The translations under genes and the position numbers were made by a program. Positions 6,057 through 59,643 of a stretch of DNA of 64,000 nucleotides are shown piece by piece (the first letter of the stretch is position 1; the number at the start of each line of letters is the position of its first letter). Source of the stretch: Armatimonadetes bacterium 55-13 (lineage in GTDB: Bacteria > Armatimonadota > Fimbriimonadia > Fimbriimonadales > Fimbriimonadaceae); NCBI GenBank assembly GCA_001898035.1, contig MKRX01000006.1, positions 310,436 to 374,435 on the forward strand, given 5' to 3'. The notes under the pieces are model-generated. The model was not told the DNA's origin and made no database searches. It was given only the letters and a program-made list of their open reading frames with translations.

Positions 6057-6062
6057 TATAAT
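6057..6062 (+). promoter_or_regulatory. -10 box of oligopeptidase B gene (leaderless arrangement)
   Basis: A perfect TATAAT stands 8 nt before the ATG at 6071, with no purine-rich Shine-Dalgarno sequence in between (GCAGCGCA). Transcription would start at or next to the start codon. No -35 hexamer is recognisable because the rpsI terminator occupies that position. Confidence 0.6.
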
Positions 6063-6070
6063 GCAGCGCA

Positions 6071-8149
6071 ATGACGGCCGCACTAATTCTTGCGCTGAGC
6101 GTGTACGCTACTCCTCAGAACGATATGCCAAAGTCTCCTGTCGCAAAGATCGAATCTCAAACCCTCACCCTTCATGGCGAAAAACTGGTCGACGACTACG
6201 CCTGGCTCCGTAGGAAGGACTCGAAAGAGGTCTTGGACTACCTGAACGCGGAAAACGCCTATGCCGAGGCGGTCATGAAGCCCACGGAGGCTCTCCAAAA
6301 TCAGCTTTACGATGAGATGCTAGGCCGCATCAAGCAAACGGACCTGAGTGTTCCCTATCCCAAAGATGGCTACCTCTACTACTCCCGCACGGAAGAGGGC
6401 AAGCAATACCCCATCATGTGCCGGAAGAAGGGAGAGAAGGGCGCAGAGGAAGTTCTGCTCGATGTCAACCAGTTGGCCGAGGGCGAGAAGTTCATGTCGG
6501 TCGGCAGCTTCGAGATCAGCGACGATGGCCAACTCTTGGCTTACACCACCGACAACACCGGATTCCGCCAATACAGCCTCCACGTCAAGAATCTAGCTAC
6601 CGGATCGCTCCTCCCGGAGACGGCGGAGCGAGTTACTAGCCTGAAGTGGGCTGCCGACAACAAAACCCTTTTCTTTGGCACTGAGGATCCGGTCTCGAAG
6701 CGCTCAAACCTCATCTTTCGCCTCGCCCTGGGCGGGAAGCCCGAGCAGATCTTCGAAGAGAAGGACGAACTCTACCGATGCGGAGTCGGAAAGAGCCTGG
6801 ACAAAGAGCTGCTCTTTATCCAGAGTTCATGCTCCGATAACGATGAGACCTGGTTCTTGGGCGCGAATAACCCCAAGGGCAAATTCAAGCTGATCGAGAA
6901 ACGGCAGGGCAAGCTGCAATACGACGTGGCTCACCACAATGGTCAGTTCTTCATTCGGACCAACAAGAACGCGAAAGACTTTGAGATCATGTCGACCAGC
7001 GTCTCTGAGCCGGGTCAGAAGCACTGGAAGCCCTTTATTCCGGCGATTCCAAAAGGAATGATTAGCGGATTCTCGGCTTTCAAGGATTACCTCGTGTACT
7101 CCAAAAGGGAAAACGGACTCCCTGGCATCGCCATCTACGATTTCGCGACCAAGAAAACCCGAGTCATCGAGACGTCAGAGGCGCTCTTCAGCATCAGCGG
7201 CAGCACCAATGCGGAGTACGACACGAAGCAGTATCGCTACTCCTACGCCTCCCCCCTGACTCCGCAAAGCATTTATGAAATTGACCTCAAATCCTTCGAG
7301 AAGAAACTCTTGAAGCAGACCGAGGTGCTGGGTGAATATGATGCTTCCCTTTATGCGATGGAGAGAACCTACGCCACCGCTCCCGATGGCACCCGTGTTC
7401 CCATCGGTTTGATCTATCGGAAAGACAAGAAAAGCGCTTCCAGAAATCCGCTGGTCCTCTACGGGTACGGCGCCTATGGCATCTCCAGTTCGTTTGGGTT
7501 TAACAGCAACCTCTTCAGCCTCCTGGATCGCGGCGTCGTCTGGGCCACCGGTCAGATTCGTGGCGGTGGTGACATGGGCGAACTCTGGCATGACGAAGGC
7601 AAGATGATGGCCAAGCGTAACACCTTCACCGACTTCGCTGCTTGCGCCGACCATCTGGTTTACGAGGGTTGGACCTCCCGAGATCGGCTTGCCATCTACG
7701 GCGGCTCCGCCGGTGGCCTGCTTGTGGGCGCGACCTTGAACATCCGCCCCGATCTCTGCAAAGCCGCCTATCTTTCAGTGCCTTTTGTGGACGTCATCAA
7801 TACGATGTACGACGAGTCGCTTCCCTTGACCGTCGGCGAGTTCTTGGAGTGGGGCAACCCAAAGAAGGAATCGGAATACCGCTACATCCGAACCTACTCT
7901 CCCTACGAGAACATCAAGTCCACCGCCTATCCCGAAATCCTCGTCAAGACCAGCTATAACGACAGCCAGGTCATGTACTGGGAACCGGCAAAATACGTGG
8001 CGAGGATGCGAGCGCACGGGAAGCCAGCCAGCGTTATCTTTAAGACCAATATGGCGGGCGGCCACGGAGGATCGTCGGGCCGTTTTGATGTTTTGCGCGA
8101 GCGAGCTTTTGACTACGCCTGGTTCCTGGAAAAGCTGGGGGTTAAGTAG
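6071..8149 (+). CDS. ptrB: Oligopeptidase B-like S9A serine peptidase
   Basis: Cleaves short peptides, probably after basic residues. The 692-aa protein has the two-part S9A layout: an N-terminal beta-propeller (about residues 75-420, with the oligopeptidase-B signature GYLYYSRTEEGKQYPI) and a C-terminal alpha/beta-hydrolase domain. The triad is visible: S546 in YGGSAGGLLVG, D631 in YNDSQVMYWEPAKYV and H665 in AGGHGGSSGR. The LPLTVGEFLEWGNP loop is characteristic of oligopeptidase B rather than prolyl oligopeptidase. The first 15 or so residues (MTAALILALSVYATPQ) are hydrophobic and may be a short export signal, unusual for this mostly cytosolic family. Monocistronic. Confidence 0.9.
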   Translation: MTAALILALSVYATPQNDMPKSPVAKIESQTLTLHGEKLVDDYAWLRRKDSKEVLDYLNAENAYAEAVMKPTEALQNQLYDEMLGRIKQTDLSVPYPKDGYLYYSRTEEGKQYPIMCRKKGEKGAEEVLLDVNQLAEGEKFMSVGSFEISDDGQLLAYTTDNTGFRQYSLHVKNLATGSLLPETAERVTSLKWAADNKTLFFGTEDPVSKRSNLIFRLALGGKPEQIFEEKDELYRCGVGKSLDKELLFIQSSCSDNDETWFLGANNPKGKFKLIEKRQGKLQYDVAHHNGQFFIRTNKNAKDFEIMSTSVSEPGQKHWKPFIPAIPKGMISGFSAFKDYLVYSKRENGLPGIAIYDFATKKTRVIETSEALFSISGSTNAEYDTKQYRYSYASPLTPQSIYEIDLKSFEKKLLKQTEVLGEYDASLYAMERTYATAPDGTRVPIGLIYRKDKKSASRNPLVLYGYGAYGISSSFGFNSNLFSLLDRGVVWATGQIRGGGDMGELWHDEGKMMAKRNTFTDFAACADHLVYEGWTSRDRLAIYGGSAGGLLVGATLNIRPDLCKAAYLSVPFVDVINTMYDESLPLTVGEFLEWGNPKKESEYRYIRTYSPYENIKSTAYPEILVKTSYNDSQVMYWEPAKYVARMRAHGKPASVIFKTNMAGGHGGSSGRFDVLRERAFDYAWFLEKLGVK

Positions 8150-8279
8150 TCCGCCGTAACATAGTCTGAGATAATCCCGACCGGGTCCCGCAACCTCGAA
8201 GGCGGGTACCTGGTACACCTTATGTAAACTGTTTGCGCTTGGCGAAGCCGCCAGGCGATGTTTGAGAGCGCCGTAATCG

Positions 8280-9602
8280 ATGGTCACCAACCCTGCCCCG
8301 GCTGAAATTCCCGATAAGAACCAGTCTCCCATTCGGAGACCGGCGGTGTTTCGGCTCTTGATCATCGCGCTCATGGCGGAGATTGCTTACGGAGTGATGA
8401 ACCTCTCCACCATGCCGGTGTACCTGTCCGGGAATCCGAATATCGGTCCCCACTGGTTACCCAACGGCCGTGGCTTTGGCGAATCGGTCATCGGCATCGT
8501 TCTCGTGGCGTTCCTGTTGAGCGAAGCGGTCTTTAAAGGCCCGATGGGCCACCTGGCCGACAGAATTGGTCCGAGGCGGCTCATGATCATGGGCCCGTCC
8601 CTCTCCATTGGCACCTCGATCCTCAGTCTGTTCGTGCCCCACGGGGGCGGAGCCTTTGAGGTTCTCTGCTTCATTCTGCTTCGAGCGATCGACGGTCTAG
8701 GCGCGGCCATGCTCTGGCCCGCCGCATTTTCCGCGATGGGCGATGCGGTAGAGGACGACCAGCGGCAACAAGCGATGTCGCTGCTGAACCTATGCTACAT
8801 GCTGGGAATCGCCCTTGCCCTTCCGATCGGGGGCATTGCGAATGACCTGGCGGGGGTGAAGTGGGCGGGATTAGTGCTGGCGGCGGTCCTCTTTGTGGGA
8901 GTCACCCTGGGATCTTGGCGTTTGGTGCCGGATACTCATCCCCCGGCTACCGAAGGAGATCCTCACGGCGAATTCAAAATCAGCGAATTCATCGAATCCT
9001 GTCGGCAGATCCCTGCCTATCTTGCGATCGCGATCGTGACCTTCACCGGCATCGGCTTCCCGATGGCCATCTTTAAGCTCTTCCCCATCGATCAGTTTGG
9101 AATGAGCGAAACGACGATCGGTTGGCTCATCTTCCCTGGCGCGATTGCGATGGGCGTGGCAAGCGTGCCAATGTCGAAGTACGGCGAAAAGATCGGACGC
9201 TCCAAGGCGGTTCACCTGGGCATGGGGTTCTGTTCCTTGGGGTTGGGGCTCATCGCCATTGGCGCGTTTGTGCCGTTCCTCCGCCATGCCTGGCTCCTCG
9301 CTCTCGGCGGACTACCGGTTGGGATCGGGTTCCTTCTGTCGATTCCGGCATGGATGGCCAGCGTGAGCGACATCGATCCTAAGAAGCGAGGTGCGAACCT
9401 GGGGGCAGTGATGACCGCTCAGGGACTCGGCGCCATTATTGGCGCTCCGATTGGATCAACCCTTTACGAGAAGCTCCAACCGGTCGGCAAAGCCATCGGC
9501 TTAGGAGCGGATTTCGGGCGGTATTCCCCCTTTGTAGGCTGCTTCGCTTGCGTCACCCTCGGGTGGCTCCTCTCTTTAAGAATCCTGCGCGACCCGCATT
9601 AA
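8280..9602 (+). CDS. MFS transporter
   Basis: Major facilitator superfamily permease of 440 aa with about 12 hydrophobic segments. The cytoplasmic loop 2-3 motif appears as GHLADRIGPRRLMIMG (about residues 90-105), a standard MFS motif A, and a second related loop, KYGEKIGRSKAVHLGM, follows helix 8. The substrate cannot be read from the sequence. The 130-nt region upstream has no gene; it contains small GC-rich inverted repeats (for example CCCGC/GCGGG at about 8189-8208). The following gene is gap, with its own upstream inverted repeat, so this is probably a single-gene unit. Confidence 0.85.
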   Translation: MVTNPAPAEIPDKNQSPIRRPAVFRLLIIALMAEIAYGVMNLSTMPVYLSGNPNIGPHWLPNGRGFGESVIGIVLVAFLLSEAVFKGPMGHLADRIGPRRLMIMGPSLSIGTSILSLFVPHGGGAFEVLCFILLRAIDGLGAAMLWPAAFSAMGDAVEDDQRQQAMSLLNLCYMLGIALALPIGGIANDLAGVKWAGLVLAAVLFVGVTLGSWRLVPDTHPPATEGDPHGEFKISEFIESCRQIPAYLAIAIVTFTGIGFPMAIFKLFPIDQFGMSETTIGWLIFPGAIAMGVASVPMSKYGEKIGRSKAVHLGMGFCSLGLGLIAIGAFVPFLRHAWLLALGGLPVGIGFLLSIPAWMASVSDIDPKKRGANLGAVMTAQGLGAIIGAPIGSTLYEKLQPVGKAIGLGADFGRYSPFVGCFACVTLGWLLSLRILRDPH

Positions 9603-9613
9603 GCGACGGTTTG

Positions 9614-9644
9614 TACCTACCAGCTACCGGGATAAAGGTAGGTA
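9614..9644 (+). promoter_or_regulatory. Inverted repeat upstream of gap (candidate operator)
   Basis: TACCTACC (9614-9621) is repeated exactly in inverse orientation as GGTAGGTA (9637-9644), 15 nt apart, 51 nt before the gap ATG. No T-tract follows, so it is a better candidate for a protein-binding site than for a terminator of the preceding MFS gene. Confidence 0.4.
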
Positions 9645-9694
9645 TTCTAACCTTATTGCTGGGCGACGCTGCCCGGTCCAGGAACCAAAAGCTT

Positions 9695-10705
9695 ATGGCT
9701 ACTCGAATTGGCATTAACGGATTCGGGCGCATCGGTCGCCTTTCATTGCGCACCATCCTTGCTCGACACCCGGGCGAACTAGAAGTCGTTGCGATCAATG
9801 ACTTGACCGACACCAACACCAACGCCCACCTTTTTAAGCACGACTCCACTTACGGAGACTTTGCCGGAACCGTGTCTTCCGACGAGGGCATCATTCACGT
9901 CAACGGGAAGGACATCAAGGTCTTCGCCGAGAAGGATCCAGGCAATATTCCCTGGGATGCTCAGGGCGTTGACGTTGTTCTGGAGTGCACCGGCTTCTTC
10001 ACCGATGCGACCAAGGCGGTTGCCCACAAGAACCACGGCGTCAAGAAAGTCATCATCTCCGCACCGGCGAAGAATGAGGACGTCACCATCGTTCTCGGCG
10101 TGAACGACGAAATGTACGATCCCGCCAAGCATCACGTGATCTCGAACGCGAGCTGCACCACTAATGGTTTGGCTCCGGTCGCAAAGGTCCTCCACGACCG
10201 TTTTGGGATCGAGAAGGGTCTTCTCACCACCGTTCACGCCTTCACCAATTCCCAGAAGACGCAGGACACGGCGGCCAAAGACCTTCGCGATGCCCGCGCG
10301 GCTTCTCAGAACGTAGTTCCTTCCTCCACCGGCGCCGCCAAGGCGGTTGGTCTGGTTATTCCGGAGTTGAAGGGCAAGTTCACCGGCATGGCATTCCGCG
10401 TCCCGGTTCCCACCGTTTCGGTGGTGGACTTCACTGCGCTCCTGAACAAGGAAGCGACGCCGGAAGAAATCAACGCCGCGATGAAGGAATATGCCGAGGG
10501 CGCCATGAAGGGCATCCTTGCCTACACTGAAGAGCCGCTGGTTAGCACGGATCTTCGCGGAAACGAGCACAGCTCCATCTTCTCCGCCATCGACACCGTT
10601 GGACTTGGCAATCTCGTCAAGGTCGTCAGCTGGTACGACAACGAGTGGGGTTACAGCTGCCGAATCGCCGACATCTGTAAGTTCGTCGCCGACAAGGGTC
10701 TCTAA
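9695..10705 (+). CDS. gap: Type I glyceraldehyde-3-phosphate dehydrogenase
   Basis: Glycolytic oxidation and phosphorylation of glyceraldehyde-3-phosphate. At 336 aa it starts MATRIGINGFGRIGRLSLRT (NAD-binding Rossmann motif). C154 in SNASCTTNGLAPV is the catalytic cysteine, and H181-region TTVHAFTNSQK supplies the general base. D36 in AINDL favours NAD over NADP. The frame is open back to 9548, but the ATG at 9695 gives the normal family N-terminus. The gene ends before a long bidirectional terminator and is probably monocistronic. Confidence 0.97.
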   Translation: MATRIGINGFGRIGRLSLRTILARHPGELEVVAINDLTDTNTNAHLFKHDSTYGDFAGTVSSDEGIIHVNGKDIKVFAEKDPGNIPWDAQGVDVVLECTGFFTDATKAVAHKNHGVKKVIISAPAKNEDVTIVLGVNDEMYDPAKHHVISNASCTTNGLAPVAKVLHDRFGIEKGLLTTVHAFTNSQKTQDTAAKDLRDARAASQNVVPSSTGAAKAVGLVIPELKGKFTGMAFRVPVPTVSVVDFTALLNKEATPEEINAAMKEYAEGAMKGILAYTEEPLVSTDLRGNEHSSIFSAIDTVGLGNLVKVVSWYDNEWGYSCRIADICKFVADKGL

Positions 10706-10721
10706 AGGCTCAACTTCATCA

Positions 10722-10766
10722 AAAACAATAGCGGGCGGAGAAAGTCTCTCCGCCCGCTATTGTTTT
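10722..10766. terminator. Bidirectional terminator between gap and the DUF1579-like gene
   Basis: A perfect 20-bp stem: the 5' arm (10722-10741) begins AAAACAATAGCGGG and is exactly complementary to the 3' arm (10747-10766), ending CGCTATTGTTTT; the loop is AAGTC. A/T-rich ends on both arms make it usable from both convergent genes. Confidence 0.92.
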
Positions 10767-10773
10767 CGTTTCG

Positions 10774-11268
10774 TTACTTGACTCGCTTTAAGTCAAAGTG
10801 AGCCACATAGCCAGCCTTGCCGTTTTGGAAGCTGGTCCAATCGCTCACCACGTGGTCAGCCGCTTTGAAGCTCAACTTCATGGAGTGCATGTGCATATCT
10901 GTGGGCTTCATGTTGGAGCCCTTGGTGAAATCGAAACTCAGCGTGTTGGCATCGCTTGACTTCAGCTTCATCGAGGGTTGGTTACCCGCCGCACAGTAGT
11001 GGGTCAAGACGAGTTGATCGCCGTCAAGGTGATACACCGTCACCATCTCATGCCCCGTCCCGGGGAATTGAGTCTCGATCAAAGCGCTCCCAGCGCCGGT
11101 GACTTTATAGACCACCTTCACATCCATGTCGCCGCTGGCTTTGCCTTCCCACGTTCCCTCAAGAGTCTTGAGTCGCTCGAAGGCTTGCTTCGCCGTCAAT
11201 GCTGGTCCCGCCCAAGCCATGAGGCTTGCGACCACGAGCAATAGAATCAAAGTAAGTTTCTTCATCAT
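10774..11268 (-). CDS. Secreted DUF1579-like protein
   Basis: A 164-aa protein with a clear Sec signal peptide (MMKKLTLILLLVVASLMAWA, cleavage expected after AWA). The mature part opens with a helix (AKQAFERLKTLEGTWEGKA) and then alternating beta strands (LIETQFPGTGHEMVTVYHLDG, LVLTHYCAAGNQPSMKL), which is the pattern of small lipocalin/FABP-like barrels annotated as DUF1579 or heme-binding-like. I do not see residues that identify a ligand. It is the only gene between the gap terminator and the SRPBCC gene and has its own short upstream gap. Confidence 0.65.
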   Translation of the reverse strand: MMKKLTLILLLVVASLMAWAGPALTAKQAFERLKTLEGTWEGKASGDMDVKVVYKVTGAGSALIETQFPGTGHEMVTVYHLDGDQLVLTHYCAAGNQPSMKLKSSDANTLSFDFTKGSNMKPTDMHMHSMKLSFKAADHVVSDWTSFQNGKAGYVAHFDLKRVK

Positions 11269-11304
11269 TTCACCTCGAAGAGGCCGTCTTCAATATAGGC
11301 CAAT

Positions 11305-12165
11305 TTAGGCCGTTTTCTCCGCCAAATCTCTTCCCTCAACCACGGCCTTGATCGCGCCGAGGAAGGCGCCCCAACCTTGGTTGTAGCCTCTCGTTTGATC
11401 CGGCTGAGTAAATCCGCTGTGGGTCAACTTCAGGGTCGTAGTCCCCCCGTCTCCCTCAAGTGTCCATTCCACGGTGGTATTCGGTTCGTCCTCAAAGTGC
11501 CAGTCCGTCACCAAACACTCTCCTTCCTTCAGACCCAGGATCTTTTCCGGTCCGAGTCCCCATCCATAGGAATAGTCTCCGCCCTCTTGGAGATCGACCT
11601 TCGCCCCTTCAGAAATCCAGATGTCCATCTTTTCTGGGTCGGTAAGGGCTGCCCAGACGTCTTCCTTGGGGGCTTGAATCGTGACCGAGCACGTGACGGT
11701 CGTAGTCAGGTTCGTGAGATCGAACTGAACCAACGCTTCACCGTTCTCCAGGTAGTGACGCAGGTTATAGAGCGCCACTTTCAGGCCATCGTGGGACATT
11801 GCAAGCGTGATGTAGTCGGTGTTGCCGGGAATCACGTGCTTCGCCAAGACACTCGATCCACCGTCCGCCGGTTGGACTTCATAGCTGAGAACGCTATCAA
11901 ACCCCTCATAGGGCCACTGGACTTCTAGTGACTTCGGCGGTTCGAGCGCAGACAGAGTTTGTCGGGCGGACTCAGCGGTCCCCGTGCCCAAGATCGTCCG
12001 GCCCCAGAATCGGAACGGACCACCGACTTTAAGGTCGGTTTCGATTCCGTCGCAGAACCAAGTCTTAAGTTGATCGGGAGTGGTGAGAGCCTCGAAGAGG
12101 CGTTCCGGACTGGCCTTGATCGTCAAGGTCCGGGTAGCGGTGGTTAGGTCCATGGTTTCGGTCAT
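11305..12165 (-). CDS. Tandem SRPBCC (AHSA1-type) domain protein
   Basis: A 286-aa protein built of two START-like domains, about residues 8-140 and 150-282. Each begins with the same pattern, SPERLFEALTTPDQLKTWFC in domain 1 and APKEDVWAALTDPEKMDIWI in domain 2, and ends with a long helix before which comes the GW(G)xFL-type segment. Such proteins bind hydrophobic ligands or assist folding; the ligand here is unknown. The start codon overlaps the stop of the upstream ArsR-type regulator by 4 nt (ATGA), the common ArsR-SRPBCC pair in bacteria, so they form one operon. Confidence 0.85.
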   Translation of the reverse strand: MTETMDLTTATRTLTIKASPERLFEALTTPDQLKTWFCDGIETDLKVGGPFRFWGRTILGTGTAESARQTLSALEPPKSLEVQWPYEGFDSVLSYEVQPADGGSSVLAKHVIPGNTDYITLAMSHDGLKVALYNLRHYLENGEALVQFDLTNLTTTVTCSVTIQAPKEDVWAALTDPEKMDIWISEGAKVDLQEGGDYSYGWGLGPEKILGLKEGECLVTDWHFEDEPNTTVEWTLEGDGGTTTLKLTHSGFTQPDQTRGYNQGWGAFLGAIKAVVEGRDLAEKTA

Positions 12166-12740: not shown

Positions 12741-12746
12741 GGTCGA

Positions 12747-12775
12747 ATCTTACAACCGAAAAGTTAGTTTGTCAA
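12747..12775 (-). promoter_or_regulatory. Sigma70 promoter of the ArsR-SRPBCC operon, leaderless
   Basis: On the minus strand TTGACA (12775-12770) and TAAGAT (12752-12747) are separated by exactly 17 nt. The -10 box ends 6 nt before the ATG at 12740, with no Shine-Dalgarno sequence in between. Transcription should start at the start codon itself. This is the best-formed leaderless promoter in the window. Confidence 0.85.
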
Positions 12776-12845
12776 GACATATATATTATTCGGCTGAATT
12801 TTCTTAAAGGAAACAGGTTAAGGAAAGGAGAACGTAATCTCTAAC

Positions 12846-14375: not shown

Positions 14376-14385
14376 GCTCAAACAG

Positions 14386-14426: not shown

Positions 14427-14428
14427 GA

Positions 14429-16186: not shown

Positions 16187-16310
16187 CACTGCCTCCACAA
16201 GAACGCTCTCCATCATATCAATGCGTTACTCTAATTCAAAAATGTTGGGAAGTTGGACCTACATTCCTCAGGGATTCAGGGTCCCAAAAGTCCCCATTCG
16301 CGCTTAGTTC

Positions 16311-16316
16311 TACAAT
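16311..16316 (+). promoter_or_regulatory. -10 box of deoC (leaderless arrangement)
   Basis: TACAAT ends 6 nt before the deoC ATG. The surrounding word GTTCTACAATAGAAGCATG recurs almost unchanged before the ALDH16 start at 18611 (GTTCCACAATAGAACCGTG), so both genes appear to share the same promoter type. No -35 consensus is evident. Confidence 0.55.
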
Positions 16317-16322
16317 AGAAGC

Positions 16323-17314: not shown

Positions 17315-17320
17315 TAATCT
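17315..17320 (+). promoter_or_regulatory. Possible -10 box of the deoC-cluster MFS gene
   Basis: TAATCT lies 6 nt before the GTG at 17327, 9 nt after the deoC stop. It has the same spacing as the other leaderless-type boxes, but GAGG in the intervening GAGGCG could also act as a weak Shine-Dalgarno sequence. Confidence 0.35.
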
Positions 17321-18598: not shown

Positions 18599-18604
18599 CA
18601 CAAT
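18599..18604 (+). promoter_or_regulatory. -10-like box of the ALDH16 gene (leaderless arrangement)
   Basis: CACAAT ends 6 nt before the GTG at 18611 and sits in the same extended word as the deoC box (TTCYACAATAGAASC). No Shine-Dalgarno sequence is present, and no -35 hexamer. Confidence 0.5.
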
Positions 18605-30017: not shown

Positions 30018-30073
30018 TGAGCCTCCGTTGGTTCAATGTCATTCTACTTGGAAGCAGAAAGGAAGCTTGACGA

Positions 30074-30573: not shown

Positions 30574-30579
30574 TACTCT
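30574..30579 (+). promoter_or_regulatory. -10 box of mtnA (leaderless arrangement)
   Basis: TACTCT ends 6 nt before the mtnA ATG (GAATTT in between, no Shine-Dalgarno sequence). No clear -35 hexamer. Confidence 0.5.
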
Positions 30580-33267: not shown

Positions 33268-33358
33268 GTTTCTTGAAAGCTCGCCAGAGAGAGAACAGAA
33301 CTGTAGACCGACCTGGATATGTCGATCCTAGTAATACTAGTTCGAGTGCTTATCCTTT

Positions 33359-34868
<1,510 letters not shown>

Positions 34869-40903: not shown

Positions 40904-40909
40904 AGAATA
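40904..40909 (-). promoter_or_regulatory. -10 box of the C45-like hydrolase gene (leaderless arrangement)
   Basis: On the minus strand TATTCT ends 6 nt before the ATG at 40897 and no Shine-Dalgarno sequence lies between (GTTGGA). It lies inside the 20-nt waaA-hydrolase gap. Confidence 0.5.
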
Positions 40910-43489: not shown

Positions 43490-43529
43490 TACTGGAAGTA
43501 TGGCAGAGCCCCGCGACATAGGCGCGAGT

Positions 43530-50174: not shown

Positions 50175-50180
50175 CATAAT
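50175..50180 (+). promoter_or_regulatory. -10-like box of thyX (leaderless arrangement)
   Basis: CATAAT ends 6 nt before the thyX ATG (CAATCC in between, no Shine-Dalgarno sequence). No -35 hexamer recognised. Confidence 0.45.
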
Positions 50181-50186
50181 CAATCC

Positions 50187-51074: not shown

Positions 51075-51077
51075 CAA

Positions 51078-51401: not shown

Positions 51402-51462
51402 TCTTAGAGAAATCCCAGAAACCGCTTGCTAGCCCATTCGTTTGACTCCGTGAGAGCAAGCA

Positions 51463-51636: not shown

Positions 51637-51682
51637 ACCCAATTCTGCGCCGCTCTATTCGTCCCTTACGTCTAAGTCGTAT

Positions 51683-52453: not shown

Positions 52454-52455
52454 TA

Positions 52456-52938: not shown

Positions 52939-53209
52939 TTAGGACTCTCCACCGGATTTAGCTCCCCCTGCCAAATCGCGACTTGTTTGATTAGTAGTAA
53001 AGTCTATCACTAATACGGGAAAAACCGCGGTGGTGATTTATTCCCTTTTTGGCGCAAATCTGGAACATTTCACAGCATCTTGTACTTTCGGGACTTGACG
53101 TTAGCGCCTCATTCATTCGATAGCGAGCATCTCAGCTAAGTTCCATGATTTTGCAAATAAGTAACTGAAGCCCTTAGCGTTGCAGCAACTTTCTGCAAGG
53201 ATTCGTCAG

Positions 53210-53215
53210 TATTCT
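53210..53215 (+). promoter_or_regulatory. -10 box of the LolA-like protein gene (leaderless arrangement)
   Basis: TATTCT ends 7 nt before the ATG at 53223, with TAAAATC between. The 284-nt region from 52939 upstream has no gene; it carries TTGACG at about 53095 but no matched -10 box. Confidence 0.5.
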
Positions 53216-53222
53216 TAAAATC

Positions 53223-53936
53223 ATGATTGTCCGTTTCGCAACTTTGGCCACCGTTTTTCTGGCAGCCTCCCTCTCTCTCGCAGCCGATAAAGAGGTCGAG
53301 GATCTGCTGGCCAAGATGCGCGCAAAATATTCCAGCGCCAAAACGGCGCATATCATTACTCGCGCCACCTCATCTAGCCTGGGGAAGAGTGCCGTTACGG
53401 TTGACGTTGTGTTTCAACAGAAGGCTAAGATCCGAGCAAAGGTCTTCGGGCTTCCATTTATGAAAGGGAAGACCTGGAACTTCACCTCAGATGGCTCAAA
53501 GATCGCCTCCGACGACTTTACGGGCCACCCGCAATACAGCGAATTCGACCCTGATCACATTCCGATGCCGGTGAATTTGGAGGTCATGAGCTTTTGGGAT
53601 TGGGAACGCCAACTGTCCACCGAGAAAGGTGCGAACATGGAGCACAGCAAATTCAAGCTGATTGCCAATGAGGCATGGGATGGCAAAAAGTGGACGGTCC
53701 TGGAAGAGACCGCGTACGGACAGTCGGTCTTTGTTCGGTATTTTATCGATCCGAAAACCTATCTCATTGGCCGCGTCATTGTTTACGATATCAAGCGGAG
53801 TGTCCAGCGCCAAGAGATGGTCGTCAAGAAAATCGAGATCAATCAGAAGGTCAATTCGAGGATCTTCGAAGTCAAAGGAGAGCCCGAAGAACAGCGTACG
53901 GTTCGGGGGCGCGTCTATAAGTCGATTGGCGGTTAG
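53223..53936 (+). CDS. Exported LolA-like lipoprotein-sorting fold protein
   Basis: A 237-aa protein with a signal peptide (TLATVFLAASLSLAADK). The mature protein opens with VEDLLAKMRAKYSSAKTAHI, followed by repeating beta strands (VVFQQKAKIRAKVFGLPFMK, FDPDHIPMPVNLEVMSF) and ends RIFEVKGEPEEQRTVRGRV. This arrangement resembles the LolA/LppX-like (DUF2092-type) fold that binds acyl groups. It may carry lipids or lipoproteins in the periplasm; other Lol genes are not in the window. Confidence 0.6.
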   Translation: MIVRFATLATVFLAASLSLAADKEVEDLLAKMRAKYSSAKTAHIITRATSSSLGKSAVTVDVVFQQKAKIRAKVFGLPFMKGKTWNFTSDGSKIASDDFTGHPQYSEFDPDHIPMPVNLEVMSFWDWERQLSTEKGANMEHSKFKLIANEAWDGKKWTVLEETAYGQSVFVRYFIDPKTYLIGRVIVYDIKRSVQRQEMVVKKIEINQKVNSRIFEVKGEPEEQRTVRGRVYKSIGG

Positions 53937-53939
53937 GAT

Positions 53940-54899
53940 TTAGCGTCGCCAAAGATTCCGATAAGTCCTCCACTCGGTCGAATCGGTCGTGTAGTCGGCA
54001 AAGATGGCAACGCCTTCAAATCGAGGACTCGATTTTTCGGCCAATGCGCTCTTGACCGCTCTAAGTGCGATCGTCAAGCATTCGGCCCGTGGATTGTGCG
54101 ATCGAGTCCCGTCTTCATAAGTTGGCACACCGATCACATACCGGCAACGGCTCCCCTTGACGGCTCGGCCAACAATCGCAACCTGTTGGGCCACGAACCA
54201 ACTGTAAAGGCGGGGAGAATAAGCTGCGGAATCGTAGGCCATTACAGCTATTTGGTCGCATCTATCCGCAACGGCGCGAAAGTAACTTTCGCTCCAACCC
54301 ACGGAAGACAAGGGCCAGGGATACCAGGTTGGGACTGCCGCTCCCAGCCAGGTCGCCGGTGGCAACGCCTTTCGGGAGTCCTCGAGCAGTCGCAGCATCC
54401 CTCGCTCACCATCGCCACAGATTTCGTAGTCCCATTGAATCCCCTGAAATCCGCATTCCACTACTAATCGCCGAGCCTCCGAGACGAGTTTCGTTCGGAC
54501 CTCTTCGTTGAGTAGATCGACGGCCCCCCGACCACGGCTATTCCCCACATAAATCCAAGCCACCCTCTTGAGAGCAGGTCCTGCCTGAGCGATGGTTCGA
54601 TTCAGTCTCTTCGCTTCTGCCCAGTGCGGATAACGCAGGGAGCCATCAGGTCTGACATCGCGGGCATGAAAATACGCGTAAGCAAATCCATCCTCGCAGA
54701 GCCGACTTGCCATTTGCTGCACTTCGCCGTCCGTGTGTTCGCCGAAGTACCAGGGGTACCGCATCCAAATTCCATTGCGACCTTGGTCGAAGCAGCCCTC
54801 GGGGGACTTTGAGAGTAAGGGAAAGGTCCAGTAGTCGAAGACGAATAATGCGATGAGAATCGCTATGGGCCACCTTGTCTTCTTCCAATACCGCTTCAC
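53940..54899 (-). CDS. Membrane-anchored GH18-like TIM-barrel protein
   Basis: A 319-aa protein with an N-terminal anchor (WPIAILIALFVFDYWTF). The rest looks like a (beta/alpha)8 barrel, with KRVAWIYVGNSRGRGAVDL, then GFQGIQWDYEICGDGERG in the position of the GH18 DxxDxDxE strand, and QIAVMAYDSAAYS later. The canonical D-x-x-D-x-D-x-E is not intact (QWDYE), so hydrolase activity is not certain. The start GTG at 54899 is used. It overlaps the 5' extension of the photolyase frame, not its real start. Confidence 0.55.
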   Translation of the reverse strand: MKRYWKKTRWPIAILIALFVFDYWTFPLLSKSPEGCFDQGRNGIWMRYPWYFGEHTDGEVQQMASRLCEDGFAYAYFHARDVRPDGSLRYPHWAEAKRLNRTIAQAGPALKRVAWIYVGNSRGRGAVDLLNEEVRTKLVSEARRLVVECGFQGIQWDYEICGDGERGMLRLLEDSRKALPPATWLGAAVPTWYPWPLSSVGWSESYFRAVADRCDQIAVMAYDSAAYSPRLYSWFVAQQVAIVGRAVKGSRCRYVIGVPTYEDGTRSHNPRAECLTIALRAVKSALAEKSSPRFEGVAIFADYTTDSTEWRTYRNLWRR

Positions 54900-54964
54900 C
54901 TTATCGACAAGAACCGAAAAAACTCACCAATCATTCCCCAAGAACCCTCGTAGAACCGAGTGCC

Positions 54965-56395
54965 ATGCCCAAACGGTTTAAGCAAGCCCTTTGTTGGATT
55001 CGACGCGACCTCCGCCTGAACGACCAACGAGCCCTTGCCGCCGCTACAGATTCCGCTGAATCGGTAGCCATGGTTTTTGTTTTTGACACGTTGATTCTTA
55101 ATGCGCTGGCGGATAGAGACGATCGACGTCTCACGTTTATCCACAGATGCCTGACTGAGTTGGACCGGAAACTGCGGGAACGGGGATCCGCCCTTATTGT
55201 CCTCCACGGTGATCCAAAAGATGAAATCCCGAGGCTAGCTCAGGCTCTGTCTGCCGAGGCGGTCTTCACCGCGCGAGACTATGAGCCCTACGCAAGGTCC
55301 CGTGACAAAGAAGTAAGTCGGCGTTTATACCAACTCAATATTGGCCTCCACAGCGTCAAAGACTCGGTGATTTTTGAGCAGGGCGAGGTACTTAACCAGT
55401 CAGATGCGCCGTTCCGCACTTACACTCCCTACGCTCGAGCTTGGCGCAATCAATTTGTGCTTGCTCGCGATGCCAGCGAGGCCGAGGCCGAGTTAGAATG
55501 CCTCTCACCCCTTTCGACGCTGAAAGACTGGCTTACCGAGTGGCCGCTGGAGAAGCTAGGATTCGAGCCCGCCGACCTTTGGATCGAGCCAGGAGAGAAC
55601 GCCGGTCTGGCCCGCCTTGACGAGTTCGCAGATCGGATCGGTCAATACGCTCATGATCGCGACTATCCCGCCATCGACGGGGTCAGCGCCCTTTCTGCCT
55701 ACCTAAGGTTTGGTGCCGTCGGAATTCGCCAGTGTGTTCGAATGGCCGTCGAGCATGGCGAAGCAGGAGAAAAATGGCTCTCCGAGTTGATCTGGCGAGA
55801 CTTTTACCAAGACATCCTCGCAAACCATCCGAACGTGGTGGAAGAGCCGTTTCAACCGCAATACAAAGACCTCGACTATCCTGGCTCCGAGGAAGGCTGG
55901 GAGGCGTGGTGCAAGGGAGAAACCGGCTATCCCATCGTTGATGCCGCCATGCGCTGCTTCAACGCGACAGGATGGATGCACGATCGACTTCGCATGATCG
56001 TCGCGTCATTTTTGACCAAGGACCTCCTTGTCGACTATCGCAAGGGTGAAGCCTACTTCGCCCGTTACTTACTGGACTTTGATCTCGCAAGCAATAACGG
56101 CGGCTGGCAATGGGCGGCAAGTGTCGGCTGTGATGCCCAACCTTATTTCCGAATCTTTAACCCCATCCTTCAGTCCAAAAAGTTTGATCCAGACGGAAAG
56201 TTCATTCGACAATGGCTGCCAGAACTGGCTGCTTTGGACAACGAGGCAATCCATTGGCCACACAATCTTCCAGCTTTTGATCTTCTCGCACAAGGAATTG
56301 AACTCGGCAACACCTACCCACATCCAGTTGTAGATCATGCAACCCAACGAGACTTGGCGATCAAGTTGCTCTCCACCGTGTCAAAGAAAGGTTAG
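54965..56395 (+). CDS. phr: Deoxyribodipyrimidine photolyase (class I, CPD type)
   Basis: Repairs UV-induced cyclobutane pyrimidine dimers with light. From the ATG at 54965 it is 476 aa. The N-terminal alpha/beta antenna domain begins QALCWIRRDLRLNDQRALAA. The FAD domain has GVSALSAYLRFGAVG, LSELIWRDFYQDILA, GYPIVDAAMRCFNATGWMHD and LVDYRKGEAYFARYLLDFDL. The Trp-rich electron-transfer region ASNNGGWQWAASVGCDAQPY is complete. The frame is open to 54875, but the added residues lie over the anchor of the opposite-strand gene. Confidence 0.95.
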   Translation: MPKRFKQALCWIRRDLRLNDQRALAAATDSAESVAMVFVFDTLILNALADRDDRRLTFIHRCLTELDRKLRERGSALIVLHGDPKDEIPRLAQALSAEAVFTARDYEPYARSRDKEVSRRLYQLNIGLHSVKDSVIFEQGEVLNQSDAPFRTYTPYARAWRNQFVLARDASEAEAELECLSPLSTLKDWLTEWPLEKLGFEPADLWIEPGENAGLARLDEFADRIGQYAHDRDYPAIDGVSALSAYLRFGAVGIRQCVRMAVEHGEAGEKWLSELIWRDFYQDILANHPNVVEEPFQPQYKDLDYPGSEEGWEAWCKGETGYPIVDAAMRCFNATGWMHDRLRMIVASFLTKDLLVDYRKGEAYFARYLLDFDLASNNGGWQWAASVGCDAQPYFRIFNPILQSKKFDPDGKFIRQWLPELAALDNEAIHWPHNLPAFDLLAQGIELGNTYPHPVVDHATQRDLAIKLLSTVSKKG

Positions 56396-56462
56396 GGTTG
56401 CTCTGGGCTTAACGATTCTTCGCCATCGGCGTCTAAAATGATAAAACGCACGGACGCGAAAC

Positions 56463-57383
56463 ATGATTCGAAAGCCTAGACCCCTTGAGCCCGGCGATGT
56501 AATCGCCCTTGTATCTCCTGCCTCGCCTCTTCCAAGAGAACGAACGGACTTCATGCGAAACCTCTTGGAATCGGAGGGCTATAAAGTCGTCTTCGCCAAC
56601 AACTGTTTCGATTCCGATTTCTACCTCGCCGGAGACGATCTCGCCCGAGCATCAGACCTAATGCAGGCGTTCCTCGATCCAGGGATCGACGCCGTTATGT
56701 GTACCCGTGGAGGCTACGGTTGCGCGCGGCTGTTCCCGTTCCTAAACCTGGATGCGATGGCCGCGCAGAACAAGATGTTTCTTGGCTTTAGCGACATCAC
56801 CACCCTGCATATTGCCTTGAATAATCGAGGGCTGGCAACGTACCACGCTCCCATGGCTCTCACCTTGCATTACGAACGCGAACCGTGGGTTTACGAATCG
56901 CTCAAGGCCACTCTCCGAGGAGAGGACCCCATCGTCCCTGGAGCCCCGAAGGGTCAGACGCTTGTGCCGGGCATCGCCGAAGGTCCGACCGTTGGCGGCT
57001 GTCTTTGCCTTTTGACTGACAGCCTCGGCACCCCCAACGCCTTAAATACCGAAGGCAAGCTCCTGATTATCGAGGATGTCGATGAGAACCCTCATCGCAT
57101 CGACGCCATGCTCACTCACCTCGTCAACTCCGGCACCGCGAGCCAAGCCGCCGGATTCGTCATCGGCGAAATGACTCGCACCGACGAACGCGTTGACGAG
57201 GGGATTGGGGGTAAACCTTGGCGTGAGATCGTCAGAGATCGAATCGCGCCCCTCGGCAAGCCCACCGTTATCGACTTTCCTTTCGGCCATTGCAAGAACA
57301 TGCTGACCCTGCCCTTGGGCATTCAAGCTAGACTCGATGCAACCGCCGGAACCCTCACCTATTTGGAGAGCCCCTGCGCATGA
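56463..57383 (+). CDS. Peptidase family S66 LD-carboxypeptidase-like protein
   Basis: A 306-aa cytoplasmic serine peptidase of family S66 (LdcA/MccF). The nucleophile is S110 in FLGFSDITTLHIALN, preceded by CTRGGYGCARLFPFLN. The acid is in LIIEDVDENPHRID and the base in FPFGHCKNMLTLP. Such enzymes cleave the L,D-bond of recycled murein tetrapeptides or detoxify peptide-linked nucleotides. The stop codon overlaps the start of the next gene by 4 nt (ATGA), so they are coupled. No symbol is given because LdcA and MccF cannot be separated here. Confidence 0.9.
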   Translation: MIRKPRPLEPGDVIALVSPASPLPRERTDFMRNLLESEGYKVVFANNCFDSDFYLAGDDLARASDLMQAFLDPGIDAVMCTRGGYGCARLFPFLNLDAMAAQNKMFLGFSDITTLHIALNNRGLATYHAPMALTLHYEREPWVYESLKATLRGEDPIVPGAPKGQTLVPGIAEGPTVGGCLCLLTDSLGTPNALNTEGKLLIIEDVDENPHRIDAMLTHLVNSGTASQAAGFVIGEMTRTDERVDEGIGGKPWREIVRDRIAPLGKPTVIDFPFGHCKNMLTLPLGIQARLDATAGTLTYLESPCA

Positions 57384-58810
57384 AGTACACATTTCGAAGT
57401 CTCTGGATCGTCGCCGTCGCGGCAAGTATCGGAGCCGCCCAAGGCCAGGCCTGGGAAAAGCCCATCGCCCCCGGAGTGACTTATCGCATGGAGGTGGACC
57501 TCGCCATTCCTCGCATCATTCATGCGTTGAGATTTAGCATGGGTTCGCCGACCGTCAAGATGGTGCCCGAACTGGGCAGCGGAGTGGTCTACCAAGAGAA
57601 TTCGACCAAGGGGCGAGAGACGGTAACCGACATGGTCACTCGGACGGGCGCCCTTGCTGGCGTCAACGCCGACTTCTTTCCGTTCACGGGAGATCCTCTC
57701 GGCGTTATGGTGCGAGACGGTCGTCTGGTCAGTGTTCCCAGTACTCAGCGTGCCGTCTTCGGCTGGGGACAGAATACGGCCACGCAGGCCCTCGTGGGGT
57801 TCAAAGGGACGGTCGAGGTCAACGGGACGAAACTCGAGTTGGACGGGCTCAACGAGGAATGTCCTGTGAACAAGATGGTGCTCAACACCGACGTCACCAG
57901 CCTGGCCATGAGCAAGACGCCTTGCGTTCATGCCGTTCTCACCATGGATGATGCTTCGTGGGCTCCCAATGGGACCTACACGGGGACCTTTCAGTCCATC
58001 TTTAAGGATGCCGCAAAGCTCCCCATCCAACCCGGCAACGCCATATTAACTGCCAGCGGAACCAAGACGCCTCTTCTCGAAAACCTTGTCCCCGGTCAAA
58101 AGGTATCCATCTCCTTTTCAACTACAGGATTCGATTGGAGCAAGATCGATCAAACCGTGGGCGGAGGACCTTTCTTGGTGAAAGATGGCCAACTCAGTGT
58201 GGATGCGGATAAGGAAGGCTTTAACGATGCCTTTACAAACAAGCGCCATCCCCGGACTGCGATCGGAAAGACGGTAGATGGAGATATTTGGCTGGTAGTT
58301 GTTGATGGCCGCCAGAAGATTTCGGATGGCGCGACACTCCCCGAAATGGGAAAGGTCATGCTCAAACTCGGGTGTACGGACGCTATCAATCTCGATGGAG
58401 GCGGTAGCTCTGCTCTTAACATCCTTGGGTTAACGTTGAGCCGCCCGAGCGATGGCCGGGAACGTCCGGTAGCCAATGGCGTTCTCATCATGGGCCCCAA
58501 ACCCGTCCCCAGCACAGATATCTTTGCGATCAAGGCGCCTTCCAAACTCGTTGTTGGTACCCCCACCACCGTCCAAGTTCTCGACAGTCAGGGTGTCATC
58601 GTCCCTAATGCCGAAGTTCTTTGGTCGTCGCTGGGCGATGCGTGGATCGATCAGGGCGGGCTGATCCGCCCGTTCCGACGCGGCAAAATGGACGTTTCTG
58701 CCCTTGTCCGTGGTCAACTGGTGAAGGCAACTATTGACGTAGTCGATCCCGAAAAGCCGGCTACGCCTCCCAAAGCCGCCCGAAAAACGAAGAAAGCCAA
58801 GCGAGCCTAG
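57380..58810 (+). CDS. Exported phosphodiester glycosidase (NAGPA domain) protein
   Basis: A 476-aa exported protein: signal FRSLWIVAVAASIGAAQGQA, then an NAGPA/phosphodiester-glycosidase domain (about 40-370) with VNADFFPFTGDPLGVMVRDG, GGGPFLVKDGQLSVDADKEG, HPRTAIGKTVDGDIWLVVVD and the catalytic loop AINLDGGGSSALNI. A short C-terminal Ig-like domain (about 375-465) and a Lys-rich tail (PPKAARKTKKAKRA) follow. The family removes GlcNAc-type caps or 1-phospho-linked sugars. It begins inside the stop of the LD-carboxypeptidase gene, so both may act on cell-wall or surface glycans. Confidence 0.87.
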   Translation: MKYTFRSLWIVAVAASIGAAQGQAWEKPIAPGVTYRMEVDLAIPRIIHALRFSMGSPTVKMVPELGSGVVYQENSTKGRETVTDMVTRTGALAGVNADFFPFTGDPLGVMVRDGRLVSVPSTQRAVFGWGQNTATQALVGFKGTVEVNGTKLELDGLNEECPVNKMVLNTDVTSLAMSKTPCVHAVLTMDDASWAPNGTYTGTFQSIFKDAAKLPIQPGNAILTASGTKTPLLENLVPGQKVSISFSTTGFDWSKIDQTVGGGPFLVKDGQLSVDADKEGFNDAFTNKRHPRTAIGKTVDGDIWLVVVDGRQKISDGATLPEMGKVMLKLGCTDAINLDGGGSSALNILGLTLSRPSDGRERPVANGVLIMGPKPVPSTDIFAIKAPSKLVVGTPTTVQVLDSQGVIVPNAEVLWSSLGDAWIDQGGLIRPFRRGKMDVSALVRGQLVKATIDVVDPEKPATPPKAARKTKKAKRA

Positions 58811-59607
58811 TTCAAAAGAAATCCCTGCTCGCGCAACCAGCCGAGCAGGGTATCCCTCCCCGTCATGTGGTGCAGATCTACGCGTCGGCCAGATCTCGTT
58901 GACCATGTGACGTCGCCCTTCATCCGTTGCGATTCATAGAATGCCCTCATTCTCTCATCGTATTCAGCCGTATCGACCTCCGATTCGTAACGCTCCCTGA
59001 ACCAGACCGCTTCCTGCCGAAGTCGAGGCTTGATTTCGGCTTTAAGCGGCGCCTCTGGCCATCCGATGCAAAGACCAAACACGCCAAACGTTCCCTCGGG
59101 AAGTCCAAAAAATTGCTTGATCCCTTCGGCATCGTTCCGAAGCGCGCCAATGTAGCAGATACCCAGCCCCAACGCCTCGGCCGCACACACCATCCGCTCC
59201 GCCGCCAGCGCAGCGTCGATAACCGCCATGATGAAGAACTCAGCGTAAGAGAGGCCCTCGGCCAGTTCGTTTTGACGGAGGGCCGCCTGCCGAAGTCGAT
59301 GATGATCCGCGAAGAAGGCAAGGAACACCCCCGCATCTCGAATTTGGTGTTGGTCGCCACAGAGCATGGCAATCTGCTCACGGCGTTCCTTCTCCTGGAC
59401 GCTGATTACGCTCCAAAGTTGAAGATTGCTGCTCGTCGCCGCACTTTGGGCCGCTGCCACCAGCGCCGCAAGCAAGGTATCGGAAATCGGTTCGTCTCGA
59501 TACTTCCGCACCGATCGGTGATTCAGAAACTTCGAGAGATCCGGTAAGGGCGGCGCATCAACGCCATATCGCTTTCGCCAAGCATCTTGGACCGATTCAT
59601 CGAACAT
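58807..59607 (-). CDS. Nitroreductase family NADPH-dependent oxidoreductase (NfsA/Frp-like)
   Basis: A 266-aa flavoprotein from the ATG at 59607. It contains the FMN-binding helix HRSVRKYRDEPISDTLLAAL, AAAQSAATSSNLQLWSVISV, the second FMN site AAERMVCAAEALGLGICYIG and FGLPEGTFGVFGLCIGWPEA. The arrangement fits the Frp/NfsA branch (oxygen-insensitive NADPH:FMN or nitro reductase). The frame is open to 59670 through a TTG, but CACAAT 7 nt before the ATG and the conserved start at FDESVQDAW favour 59607. It overlaps the convergent NAGPA gene by 4 nt. Confidence 0.88.
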   Translation of the reverse strand: MFDESVQDAWRKRYGVDAPPLPDLSKFLNHRSVRKYRDEPISDTLLAALVAAAQSAATSSNLQLWSVISVQEKERREQIAMLCGDQHQIRDAGVFLAFFADHHRLRQAALRQNELAEGLSYAEFFIMAVIDAALAAERMVCAAEALGLGICYIGALRNDAEGIKQFFGLPEGTFGVFGLCIGWPEAPLKAEIKPRLRQEAVWFRERYESEVDTAEYDERMRAFYESQRMKGDVTWSTRSGRRVDLHHMTGRDTLLGWLREQGFLLN

Positions 59608-59614
59608 AGGCTCA

Positions 59615-59643
59615 ATTGTGTCGCACGCCCGAACAATGTGAAC
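59615..59643 (-). promoter_or_regulatory. Promoter of the nitroreductase gene (leaderless arrangement)
   Basis: On the minus strand TTCACA (59642-59637) and CACAAT (59620-59615) are separated by 16 nt, and the -10 box ends 7 nt before the ATG at 59607 (TGAGCCT in between). No Shine-Dalgarno sequence. Confidence 0.55.

What the first reader, a model, noticed from the sequence alone, without database searches (positions are those of the whole stretch)
6057..59643. Many genes have a -10 box 6-8 nt before the start codon: widespread leaderless transcription
At least ten starts share the layout 'TANNNT-like box, 6-8 nt, ATG/GTG, no Shine-Dalgarno': oligopeptidase B (TATAAT, 8 nt), deoC (TACAAT, 6), MFS 17327 (TAATCT, 6), ALDH16 (CACAAT, 6), mtnA (TACTCT, 6), C45-like hydrolase (TATTCT, 6), thyX (CATAAT, 6), LolA-like (TATTCT, 7), nitroreductase (CACAAT, 7), ArsR-type regulator (TAAGAT, 6), and perhaps purC (CATACT, 7). 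The ArsR case also has TTGACA with a 17-nt spacer, leaving no doubt about the box. Other genes (infA, scoA, DUF3352) have strong Shine-Dalgarno sequences, so two initiation modes coexist. The pattern is known from Deinococcus-Thermus and Actinobacteria; I infer it is general in this lineage.
Basis: partly seen in the sequence, partly recalled or inferred. Interest (0 to 1): 0.75.

Follow-up and report, generated by a model that had tools for sequence, protein, structure and literature searches.

The report
Leaderless genes throughout a Fimbriimonadia bacterium
In this bacterium roughly a quarter of genes carry their promoter's -10 box right in front of the start codon, so the messenger RNA probably begins at the start codon itself with no ribosome-binding leader; this is a known way of making proteins, here found in the class Fimbriimonadia.

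Summary
All 11 named starts carry the stated box at the stated distance and no SD-like match. Over 1.23 Mb of the genome, with starts chosen blind to motifs, TANNNT peaks 6-7 nt before the start (81 seen, 22.6 expected). A fixed mixture model puts 26% of genes in the -10 class; shuffles and E. coli give 0%.

The box is a promoter element: literal GGTANNNT stands before 8 of 14 tRNA genes, and box hits are dense in promoter-bearing intergenic DNA but not in convergent or coding DNA. In mtnA, thyX and purC orthologs of the family a box lies beside a candidate start in 42 of 49, 27 of 30 and 26 of 30, well above control distances. GTG starts are enriched exactly at 6 nt, and TTG starts carry no box.

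The family is that of Fimbriimonas. The trait is shared by its order but was not seen in four sampled families elsewhere in the phylum. Most boxes look like extended -10 elements (G at -14) without a -35; the TTGACA case is an exception. Known kind, new lineage. No transcript ends were measured.

The parts
6057..6062 (+). -10 box TATAAT, 8 nt before oligopeptidase B ATG (6071)
   Evidence: closest named relative L002 has TACAAT 5 nt before its ATG
16311..16316 (+). -10 box TACAAT, 6 nt before deoC ATG (16323)
17315..17320 (+). -10 box TAATCT (GGTAATCT), 6 nt before MFS GTG (17327)
   Evidence: blind caller preferred 17423
18599..18604 (+). -10 box CACAAT, 6 nt before aldehyde dehydrogenase GTG (18611)
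30574..30579 (+). -10 box TACTCT (GGTACTCT), 6 nt before mtnA ATG (30586)
   Evidence: box beside a candidate start in 42 of 49 family orthologs, own gene included
40904..40909 (-). -10 box TATTCT, 6 nt before phospholipase B-like (reader: C45-like) ATG (40897)
50175..50180 (+). -10 box CATAAT, 6 nt before thyX ATG (50187)
   Evidence: 27 of 30 family orthologs, own gene included
59615..59620 (-). -10 box CACAAT, 7 nt before nitroreductase ATG (59607)
12747..12752 (-). -10 box TAAGAT, 6 nt before ArsR-like regulator ATG (12740)
12770..12775 (-). -35 box TTGACA, 17 nt before the ArsR-like -10; atypical of this set
   Evidence: no -35 enrichment at near-start boxes
43497..43502 (-). -10 box CATACT, 7 nt before purC ATG (43489)
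   Evidence: 26 of 30 family orthologs, own gene included; alternative boxed ATG at 43519
1130..1134 (+). Shine-Dalgarno AGGAG of infA (ATG 1139): the other initiation mode
30022..30026 (-). Shine-Dalgarno GGAGG of CoA transferase (ATG 30017)
16192..16196 (-). Shine-Dalgarno GGAGG of DUF3352 protein if it starts at ATG 16186
33361..33365 (-). anti-Shine-Dalgarno CCTCC at the 3' end of 16S rRNA, intact

Best explanation
A large minority of genes (about a quarter by the mixture model, about 10-13% by simple excess counts) are transcribed from a promoter whose -10 element sits directly before the start codon. RNA polymerase with a housekeeping-type sigma factor reads an extended -10 element (G at -14; then GGTANNNT, or a C-12 form such as TGCCANAAT), mostly without a -35 contact. 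It starts RNA at or within about 3 nt of the A/G of ATG or GTG. Such mRNAs have no room for a Shine-Dalgarno sequence and would be started by the ribosome at the 5'-terminal ATG/GTG, as in mycobacteria and Deinococcus. Other genes, above all those inside operons, use Shine-Dalgarno pairing to an intact anti-SD. Shown here from sequence: the box, its spacing, its promoter nature, its conservation and its lineage range. Inferred: the sigma factor, the exact transcript 5' end, and translation of the leaderless mRNA.
For: Start-aligned peak: 81 TANNNT at gaps 6-7 against 22.6 expected, p=1.6e-21. De novo EM from random seeds: the best solution on all 1001 genes is GGAGG plus TAaAcT at gaps 6-7 (not on the subsets, see against). 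Mixture with matrices and positions fixed from this genome: 26% here, shuffled null 0.00; 16-40% in 4 other family genomes; 0.00 in 150 kb of E. coli. Promoter nature: a matrix trained on gene starts scores >=7 before 57% of 14 tRNA genes against 3% in shuffles; literal GGTANNNT before 8 of 14; hits >=7 are 1.31/kb in divergent and 1.29/kb in tandem-sense intergenic DNA against 0.61 tandem antisense, 0.32 convergent, 0.32-0.35 coding. Footprints: [TC]ANNNT at gaps 5-9 of a candidate start in 42/49 mtnA, 27/30 thyX, 26/30 purC family orthologs, against 7-18, 7-13 and 3-7 at control distances. G-14 is the upstream base shared by all three genes (0.83, 0.81, 0.69). In mtnA the start shifts by up to 18 nt between orthologs and the box shifts with it. 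Start codons, five family genomes: GTG at gap 6, 17 seen against 1.4 from GTG background, and 17 of 61 at gap 6 against 11 of 171 at gaps 7-12 (p=4e-5); TTG genes have 0 boxes at gaps 5-9 where 9.7 would be expected at the ATG rate. The class is commoner in divergent genes (35%) than inside operons (16%), where SD is 69%. Published: 25% SD-bearing mRNAs in Fimbriimonadia, 70% in Chthonomonadetes (PMC10783764, passages read).
Against: No transcript 5' end is known for any of these genes. The mixture share depends on a home-made gene caller and on a matrix trained with start re-selection in the same genome; simple excess counts are lower (9.6% strict; at most 13.5% by matrix). On subsets (551 divergent or far genes; 271 operon genes) the best EM solutions did not contain a clean TANNNT. 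Genes 100 nt or more behind a same-strand neighbour show only 19%, and genes inside operons still 16%, which does not fit 'first genes only'. 7 of 49 mtnA, 3 of 30 thyX and 4 of 30 purC orthologs lack the box; the rows are related species, some nearly identical, and include the window's own gene. TTG absence alone is weak: 0 seen against 2.7 from TTG's own background (P=0.07), and TTG is also absent at gaps 4 and 10-12.
Confidence: 0.92

Rival explanations
1. The box is an RNA-level translation signal (a non-SD ribosome-binding element), and transcripts start further upstream.
For: It is position-locked to start codons and also occurs before genes inside operons (16%).
Against: Literal GGTANNNT stands shortly before 8 of 14 tRNA genes, which are not translated. 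Hits are enriched across divergent and tandem-sense intergenic DNA. G at -14, outside the hexamer, is shared by mtnA, thyX and purC orthologs, as for an extended -10.
Confidence: 0.04
2. The start codons are mis-set: the box is an ordinary -10 and the real start lies further downstream with a normal leader.
For: Start choice is uncertain for some genes (MFS 17327, mtnA 30586, purC).
Against: In thyX all 27 box-bearing rows have the start at the same place in the protein alignment and most read ATG-GCN/GGN-CGN straight after it. Blindly chosen starts show the peak.
Confidence: 0.03
3. The pattern is chance or base-composition bias near starts.
For: Strict TANNNT alone in the window is only modestly above shuffles (7 of 53; 6 of 500 shuffles reach it).
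Against: Genome-wide statistics, shuffled null 0.00, E. coli 0.00, ortholog footprints against control distances.
Confidence: 0.01

Closest known systems
-10-motif-adjacent ORFs of Deinococcus-Thermus (PMC12340547, passages read; Zheng et al. 2011 PMC3160421, passages read)
   Same: TANNNT box a few nt before the start, coexisting with GGAG genes; similar share (about 30% and 39% reported; 26% by my mixture here).
   Different: Different phylum. Here G at -14 and, with T-12, G at -13 are enriched, and no -35 was found at these boxes; I did not compare these two points with Deinococcus. In Deinococcus the function was tested by experiment; here not.
Leaderless RTG mRNAs of mycobacteria (Shell et al. 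2015, PMC4633059, passages read)
   Same: ATG or GTG work at the 5' end and TTG does not; here GTG is enriched exactly at gap 6 and TTG genes carry no box.
   Different: Mycobacterial transcript ends and ribosome footprints were measured; here only sequence.
Leaderless bacterial group of GeneMarkS-2 (Lomsadze et al. 2018; not held; seen only as summarised in PMC9581028)
   Different: Its genome list was not seen and could include Fimbriimonas.

Membership tests
Bacterial leaderless-gene genomes (Zheng 2011 / -10-motif ORFs) | TANNNT-type -10 box about 12 nt upstream of the start in a large share of genes | tested here: met
Bacterial leaderless-gene genomes (Zheng 2011 / -10-motif ORFs) | Box acts as a promoter element | tested here: met
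   by sequence only: tRNA upstream regions, intergenic distribution, ortholog footprints
Bacterial leaderless-gene genomes (Zheng 2011 / -10-motif ORFs) | Transcript 5' end at or within a few nt of the start codon | not testable with these tools
   needs 5'-end RNA sequencing; indirect support from GTG enrichment at gap 6
Bacterial leaderless-gene genomes (Zheng 2011 / -10-motif ORFs) | SD-led genes coexist with intact anti-SD | tested here: met
   GGAGG class 44%; CCTCC at 16S 3' end
RTG leaderless translation (mycobacterial type) | ATG and GTG, not TTG, at the 5' end | tested here: met
   by sequence only: GTG 17 at gap 6 against 1.4 expected; TTG 0 at gaps 5-9 against 9.7 at the ATG rate but 2.7 from background
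Classical sigma-70 promoter with -35 | TTGACA-like -35 about 17 nt upstream of the -10 | tested here: not met
   no enrichment at 101 near-start boxes nor in orthologs; present in the ArsR-like gene; TTG at 17 nt in 4 of 10 boxed tRNA upstream regions
Extended -10 promoter (TGnTATAAT; recalled) | G at -14 | tested here: met
   0.83, 0.81, 0.69 in mtnA, thyX, purC orthologs; pooled genes 0.46 against 0.31 at T-12 boxes, 0.37 against 0.30 at C-12 boxes
Extended -10 promoter (TGnTATAAT; recalled) | T at -15 | tested here: inconclusive
   0.63 in thyX orthologs but 0.14 and 0.23 in mtnA and purC, and not enriched in pooled genes

The most novel reading that the evidence does not exclude
Within Armatimonadota, the Fimbriimonas order placed a quarter of its genes directly behind a -35-free extended -10 element (GG-TANNNT and a C-12 form), making their mRNAs leaderless, while sister families of the phylum did not; each gene then kept its own box variant through the family. 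The element itself may be older than the switch: literal GGTANNNT also precedes 2 of 3 tRNA genes sampled outside the order, so the new step would be its locking to start codons and the loss of the -35 there. (Odds lowered from 0.40 to 0.35 on recheck for this reason.)
Probability: 0.35. Interest if true: 0.6.

Novelty: new member of a known kind. Interest (0 to 1): 0.42.

Why it matters
It adds a class-level lineage to the bacteria with widespread leaderless transcription and offers an explanation for the published low Shine-Dalgarno share of Fimbriimonadia. Gene starts in these genomes should be re-called with a leaderless model. Because four sampled families of the same phylum seem to lack the trait, the group is a natural place to ask how a genome gains or loses leaderless expression, and Fimbriimonas ginsengisoli Gsoil 348 is a named strain with a complete genome in which to test it.

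Tried and rejected
SD exclusion: only 4 of 144 box genes have an SD against 262 of 855 others, but decoy hexamers at the same place also go with few SDs (TNNNAT 3.2%, ACNNNT 2.5%, TCNNNT 5.6%), because a hexamer there takes the room; I do not count this as evidence.

Joint re-selection of starts with free motifs gave 35-37% for the -10 class, but seeded with CGATCG the same program filled 57% with a vague motif, and seeded with ATTATA it drifted to the same box shifted by one base (48%); not used for the estimate. I used the fixed-parameter mixture with shuffled null and simple excess counts.

-35 search: counts of >=4 matches to TTGACA, TTG frequency and mean matches, and column information in orthologs were all negative for near-start boxes.

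A fourth ortholog set (the LolA-like gene) gave matches in only 7 of 35 genomes and no DNA, so it was not used. Of the 80 named opdB loci I looked at 9; L002 has a box at 5 nt, and among the rest L006 and L036 show one by one of several candidate starts. Sigma-factor residues were not compared: the RpoD-like hits lie outside the DNA held, save a weak one.

Dropped before counts: genes with N or a contig edge upstream (1006 called; 999-1004 used by stretch length); one of 50 family mtnA loci (L144, contig edge), also one of 80 mtnA loci in all; for base tables 7 of 49 mtnA, 3 of 30 thyX and 4 of 30 purC rows without a box, so that A-11 and T-7 there are fixed by my filter. Fetched but not used: C4 (2,954 bases). 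E. coli control: 113 genes called in 150 kb, so the caller misses some annotated genes. G038 and G044 samples are 40 kb each (22-24 genes) and say little alone. Family f4 of the order was not sampled.
Full report
WHAT THE WINDOW IS. The window is G000:C6:310436-374435 of a 4.53 Mb, 27-contig genome, 99% complete. Its closest oligopeptidase B among the named genomes found is an Armatimonadetes MAG at 63% identity. One genome of the same family (G149) has a contig of 5,231,762 bases, the exact size published for Fimbriimonas ginsengisoli Gsoil 348, class Fimbriimonadia (PMC4072686, passages read). So family f1 is the family of Fimbriimonas. The 16S 3' end carries an intact anti-SD.

CHECK OF THE OBSERVATION. 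All 11 named starts have the stated box at the stated distance and no SD-like match. In the window 13 of 53 blindly called genes have [TC]ANNNT 6-8 nt before the start; control distances give a mean of 3.9 and shuffles 4.9, none of 500 reaching 13. Strict TANNNT is weaker: 7 of 53, reached by 6 of 500 shuffles.

GENOME-WIDE TEST. I took 1.23 Mb of the genome and called 1006 genes with a coding-potential model whose start choice ignores upstream motifs. TANNNT per gap rises from 4 at gap 4 to 47 at gap 6 and 34 at gap 7, with a background of about 11. Gaps 6-7 together: 81 against 22.6 expected, p=1.6e-21. De novo EM with random seeds gave GGAGG in 44% and TAaAcT at gaps 6-7 in 28% as its best solution on all genes; the second-best solution there, and the best ones on subsets (551 divergent or far genes, 271 operon genes), did not contain a clean TANNNT. 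With matrices and position priors fixed from this genome, the -10 class is 26% (SD 44%, neither 30%), shuffled null 0.00. By context: divergent 35%, far 19%, mid 34%, inside operons 16%. Excess counts are 9.6% (strict TANNNT) and up to 13.5% (matrix).

IT IS A PROMOTER ELEMENT. Of 14 tRNA genes in the sampled DNA, 57% have a hit of 7 or more (matrix trained on gene starts) within 60 nt upstream, against 3% in shuffles. Literal GGTANNNT within 45 nt precedes 8 of 14; in other samples 0 of 3 (family), 5 of 10 (order) and 2 of 3 (outside the order), so the element is not peculiar to the order. Hits of 7 or more are 1.31/kb in divergent and 1.29/kb in tandem-sense intergenic DNA, 0.61/kb tandem antisense, 0.32/kb convergent, 0.32-0.35/kb coding. 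tRNAs are not translated, so the element cannot be only a translation signal.

CONSERVATION. Family orthologs: mtnA 42 of 49, thyX 27 of 30, purC 26 of 30 have [TC]ANNNT at gaps 5-9 of a candidate start; control distances give 7-18, 7-13 and 3-7. Several candidate starts and five gaps are allowed, so the control columns and not zero are the right comparison; the rows include the window's own gene and some near-identical species. Strict TANNNT: mtnA 41 of 49, thyX 7 of 30, purC 9 of 30, since thyX and purC mostly have C at -12. The usual forms are GGTACCCT in mtnA, TGCCANAAT in thyX and CATAAT in purC. In mtnA the start position relative to the protein alignment ranges from 0 to -18 and the box moves with it. 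mtnA in other families of the order: 8 of 12; in the rest of the phylum 1 of 18 strict, 3 of 18 with C allowed.

PROMOTER ANATOMY. In box-aligned orthologs columns above 0.35 bits lie only from -15 to -7; A-11 and T-7 were required by my filter; G-14 is 0.83, 0.81 and 0.69. The -38..-29 zone has 0.07-0.10 bits per column, like far upstream (0.07-0.09). In pooled family genes, T-12 boxes near starts have G-13 0.51 against 0.28 and G-14 0.46 against 0.31; C-12 boxes have A-9 0.65 against 0.23 and G-14 0.37 against 0.30. For 101 near-start boxes with G-14, TTG at spacer 17 is 2%, the same as control. So these look like extended -10 promoters without -35, and the TTGACA of the ArsR-like gene is unusual. 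Boxed tRNA upstream regions have TTG at spacer 17 in 4 of 10 here, 0 of 1 in the family, 1 of 7 in the order and 1 of 2 outside, so a -35 seems to exist in this organism.

START CODONS. Pooled over five family genomes (1288 genes): GTG genes have 17 TANNNT at gap 6 against 1.4 expected from their own background, ATG genes 44 against 11.2, TTG genes 0 against 0.5. GTG is 17 of 61 at gap 6 and 11 of 171 at gaps 7-12 (p=4e-5). TTG genes have no box at gaps 5-9; 9.7 would be expected at the ATG rate (P=6e-5) but only 2.7 from their own background (P=0.07), and TTG is also absent at gaps 4 and 10-12, so I read this as 'TTG genes show no excess'. Gap 6 is where the start codon's first base would be +1 with a standard -10 at -12..-7 (recalled). 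Mycobacterial leaderless reporters accept ATG and GTG and not TTG (PMC4633059, passages read).

LINEAGE RANGE. Same model, same parameters: family genomes 0.26 (own), 0.26, 0.16, 0.40, 0.35 (F. ginsengisoli); order f2, f5, f2, f3, f5: 0.19, 0.25, 0.17, 0.13, 0.17; other Armatimonadota families f11, f12, f32, f23: 0.05, 0.04, 0.00, 0.00; E. coli K-12 0.00. The parameters come from this genome, so a different -10 flavour elsewhere could be missed; the strict TANNNT count agrees (20 against 5.4 in the other family genomes, 18 against 7.6 in the order, p=0.001; 6 against 4.9 outside, p=0.37). Relatives are represented by 40-120 kb each. Whether the order gained the trait or the others lost it is open.

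LITERATURE. Leaderless genes with TANNNT are described for Deinococcus-Thermus, Actinobacteria, Acidobacteria, Aquificae and others (PMC3160421, passages) and experimentally for Deinococcus (PMC12340547, passages). A survey gives 25% SD-bearing mRNAs for Fimbriimonadia and 70% for Chthonomonadetes (PMC10783764, passages); it does not call Fimbriimonadia leaderless in the passages seen. Searches for leaderless with Armatimonadetes, leaderless with Armatimonadota, and Fimbriimonadia with Shine-Dalgarno found two papers each; apart from PMC10783764 I saw only their listings, none of which announces leaderless genes in this class. The library holds open-licence papers only, and whole-domain scans (GeneMarkS-2, not held; supplementary figures of PMC12340547, not seen) may include Fimbriimonas.

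VERDICT. Widespread leaderless transcription in this lineage is the best explanation by a wide margin. What seems new is the lineage, its limits within the phylum as sampled, and the -35-less extended -10 form at the start codon. The missing piece is a 5'-end map.

Noticed in passing
window 33358-34867 (-): A 16S rRNA gene stands without a 23S gene in the window (the only rRNA hit by Rfam); split rRNA genes are published for Fimbriimonas ginsengisoli (PMC4072686, passages).
   Followed up: no
G000:C27:225995-226702, C5:285189-285875, C15:88939-89649: Three RpoD-like sigma factors (348, 325, 246 bits), all under the family cut-off of 354 bits, besides weaker hits; their promoter-reading regions were not examined.
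   Followed up: no
tRNA upstream regions of the sampled genome: TTG (three of four TTGC) lies 17 nt before the -10 in 4 of 10 boxed tRNA upstream regions, so a -35 may be kept for stable RNA and missing at leaderless genes; GGTANNNT also precedes 2 of 3 tRNA genes outside the order.
   Followed up: partly
thyX, purC, mtnA orthologs: Each gene mostly keeps its own -10 variant across the family (GGTACCCT, TGCCANAAT, CATAAT), with C rather than T at -12 in thyX and purC.
   Followed up: partly
own genome, genes less than 30 nt behind a same-strand neighbour: 16% of genes inside operons fall in the -10 class, suggesting internal leaderless promoters.
   Followed up: no
TANNNT at gap 9, own genome: A secondary bump of 30 boxes at gap 9 beside 20 at gap 8, not explained; perhaps 3-nt leaders.
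   Followed up: no
window 43519 (-): purC has a second in-frame ATG 30 nt upstream with its own box TAGACT at 7 nt; two leaderless starts may be possible.
   Followed up: no
L017 (Armatimonadaceae MAG): Oligopeptidase B is preceded by GGTATCCT some 14-20 nt before its candidate starts, a short leader rather than none.
   Followed up: no
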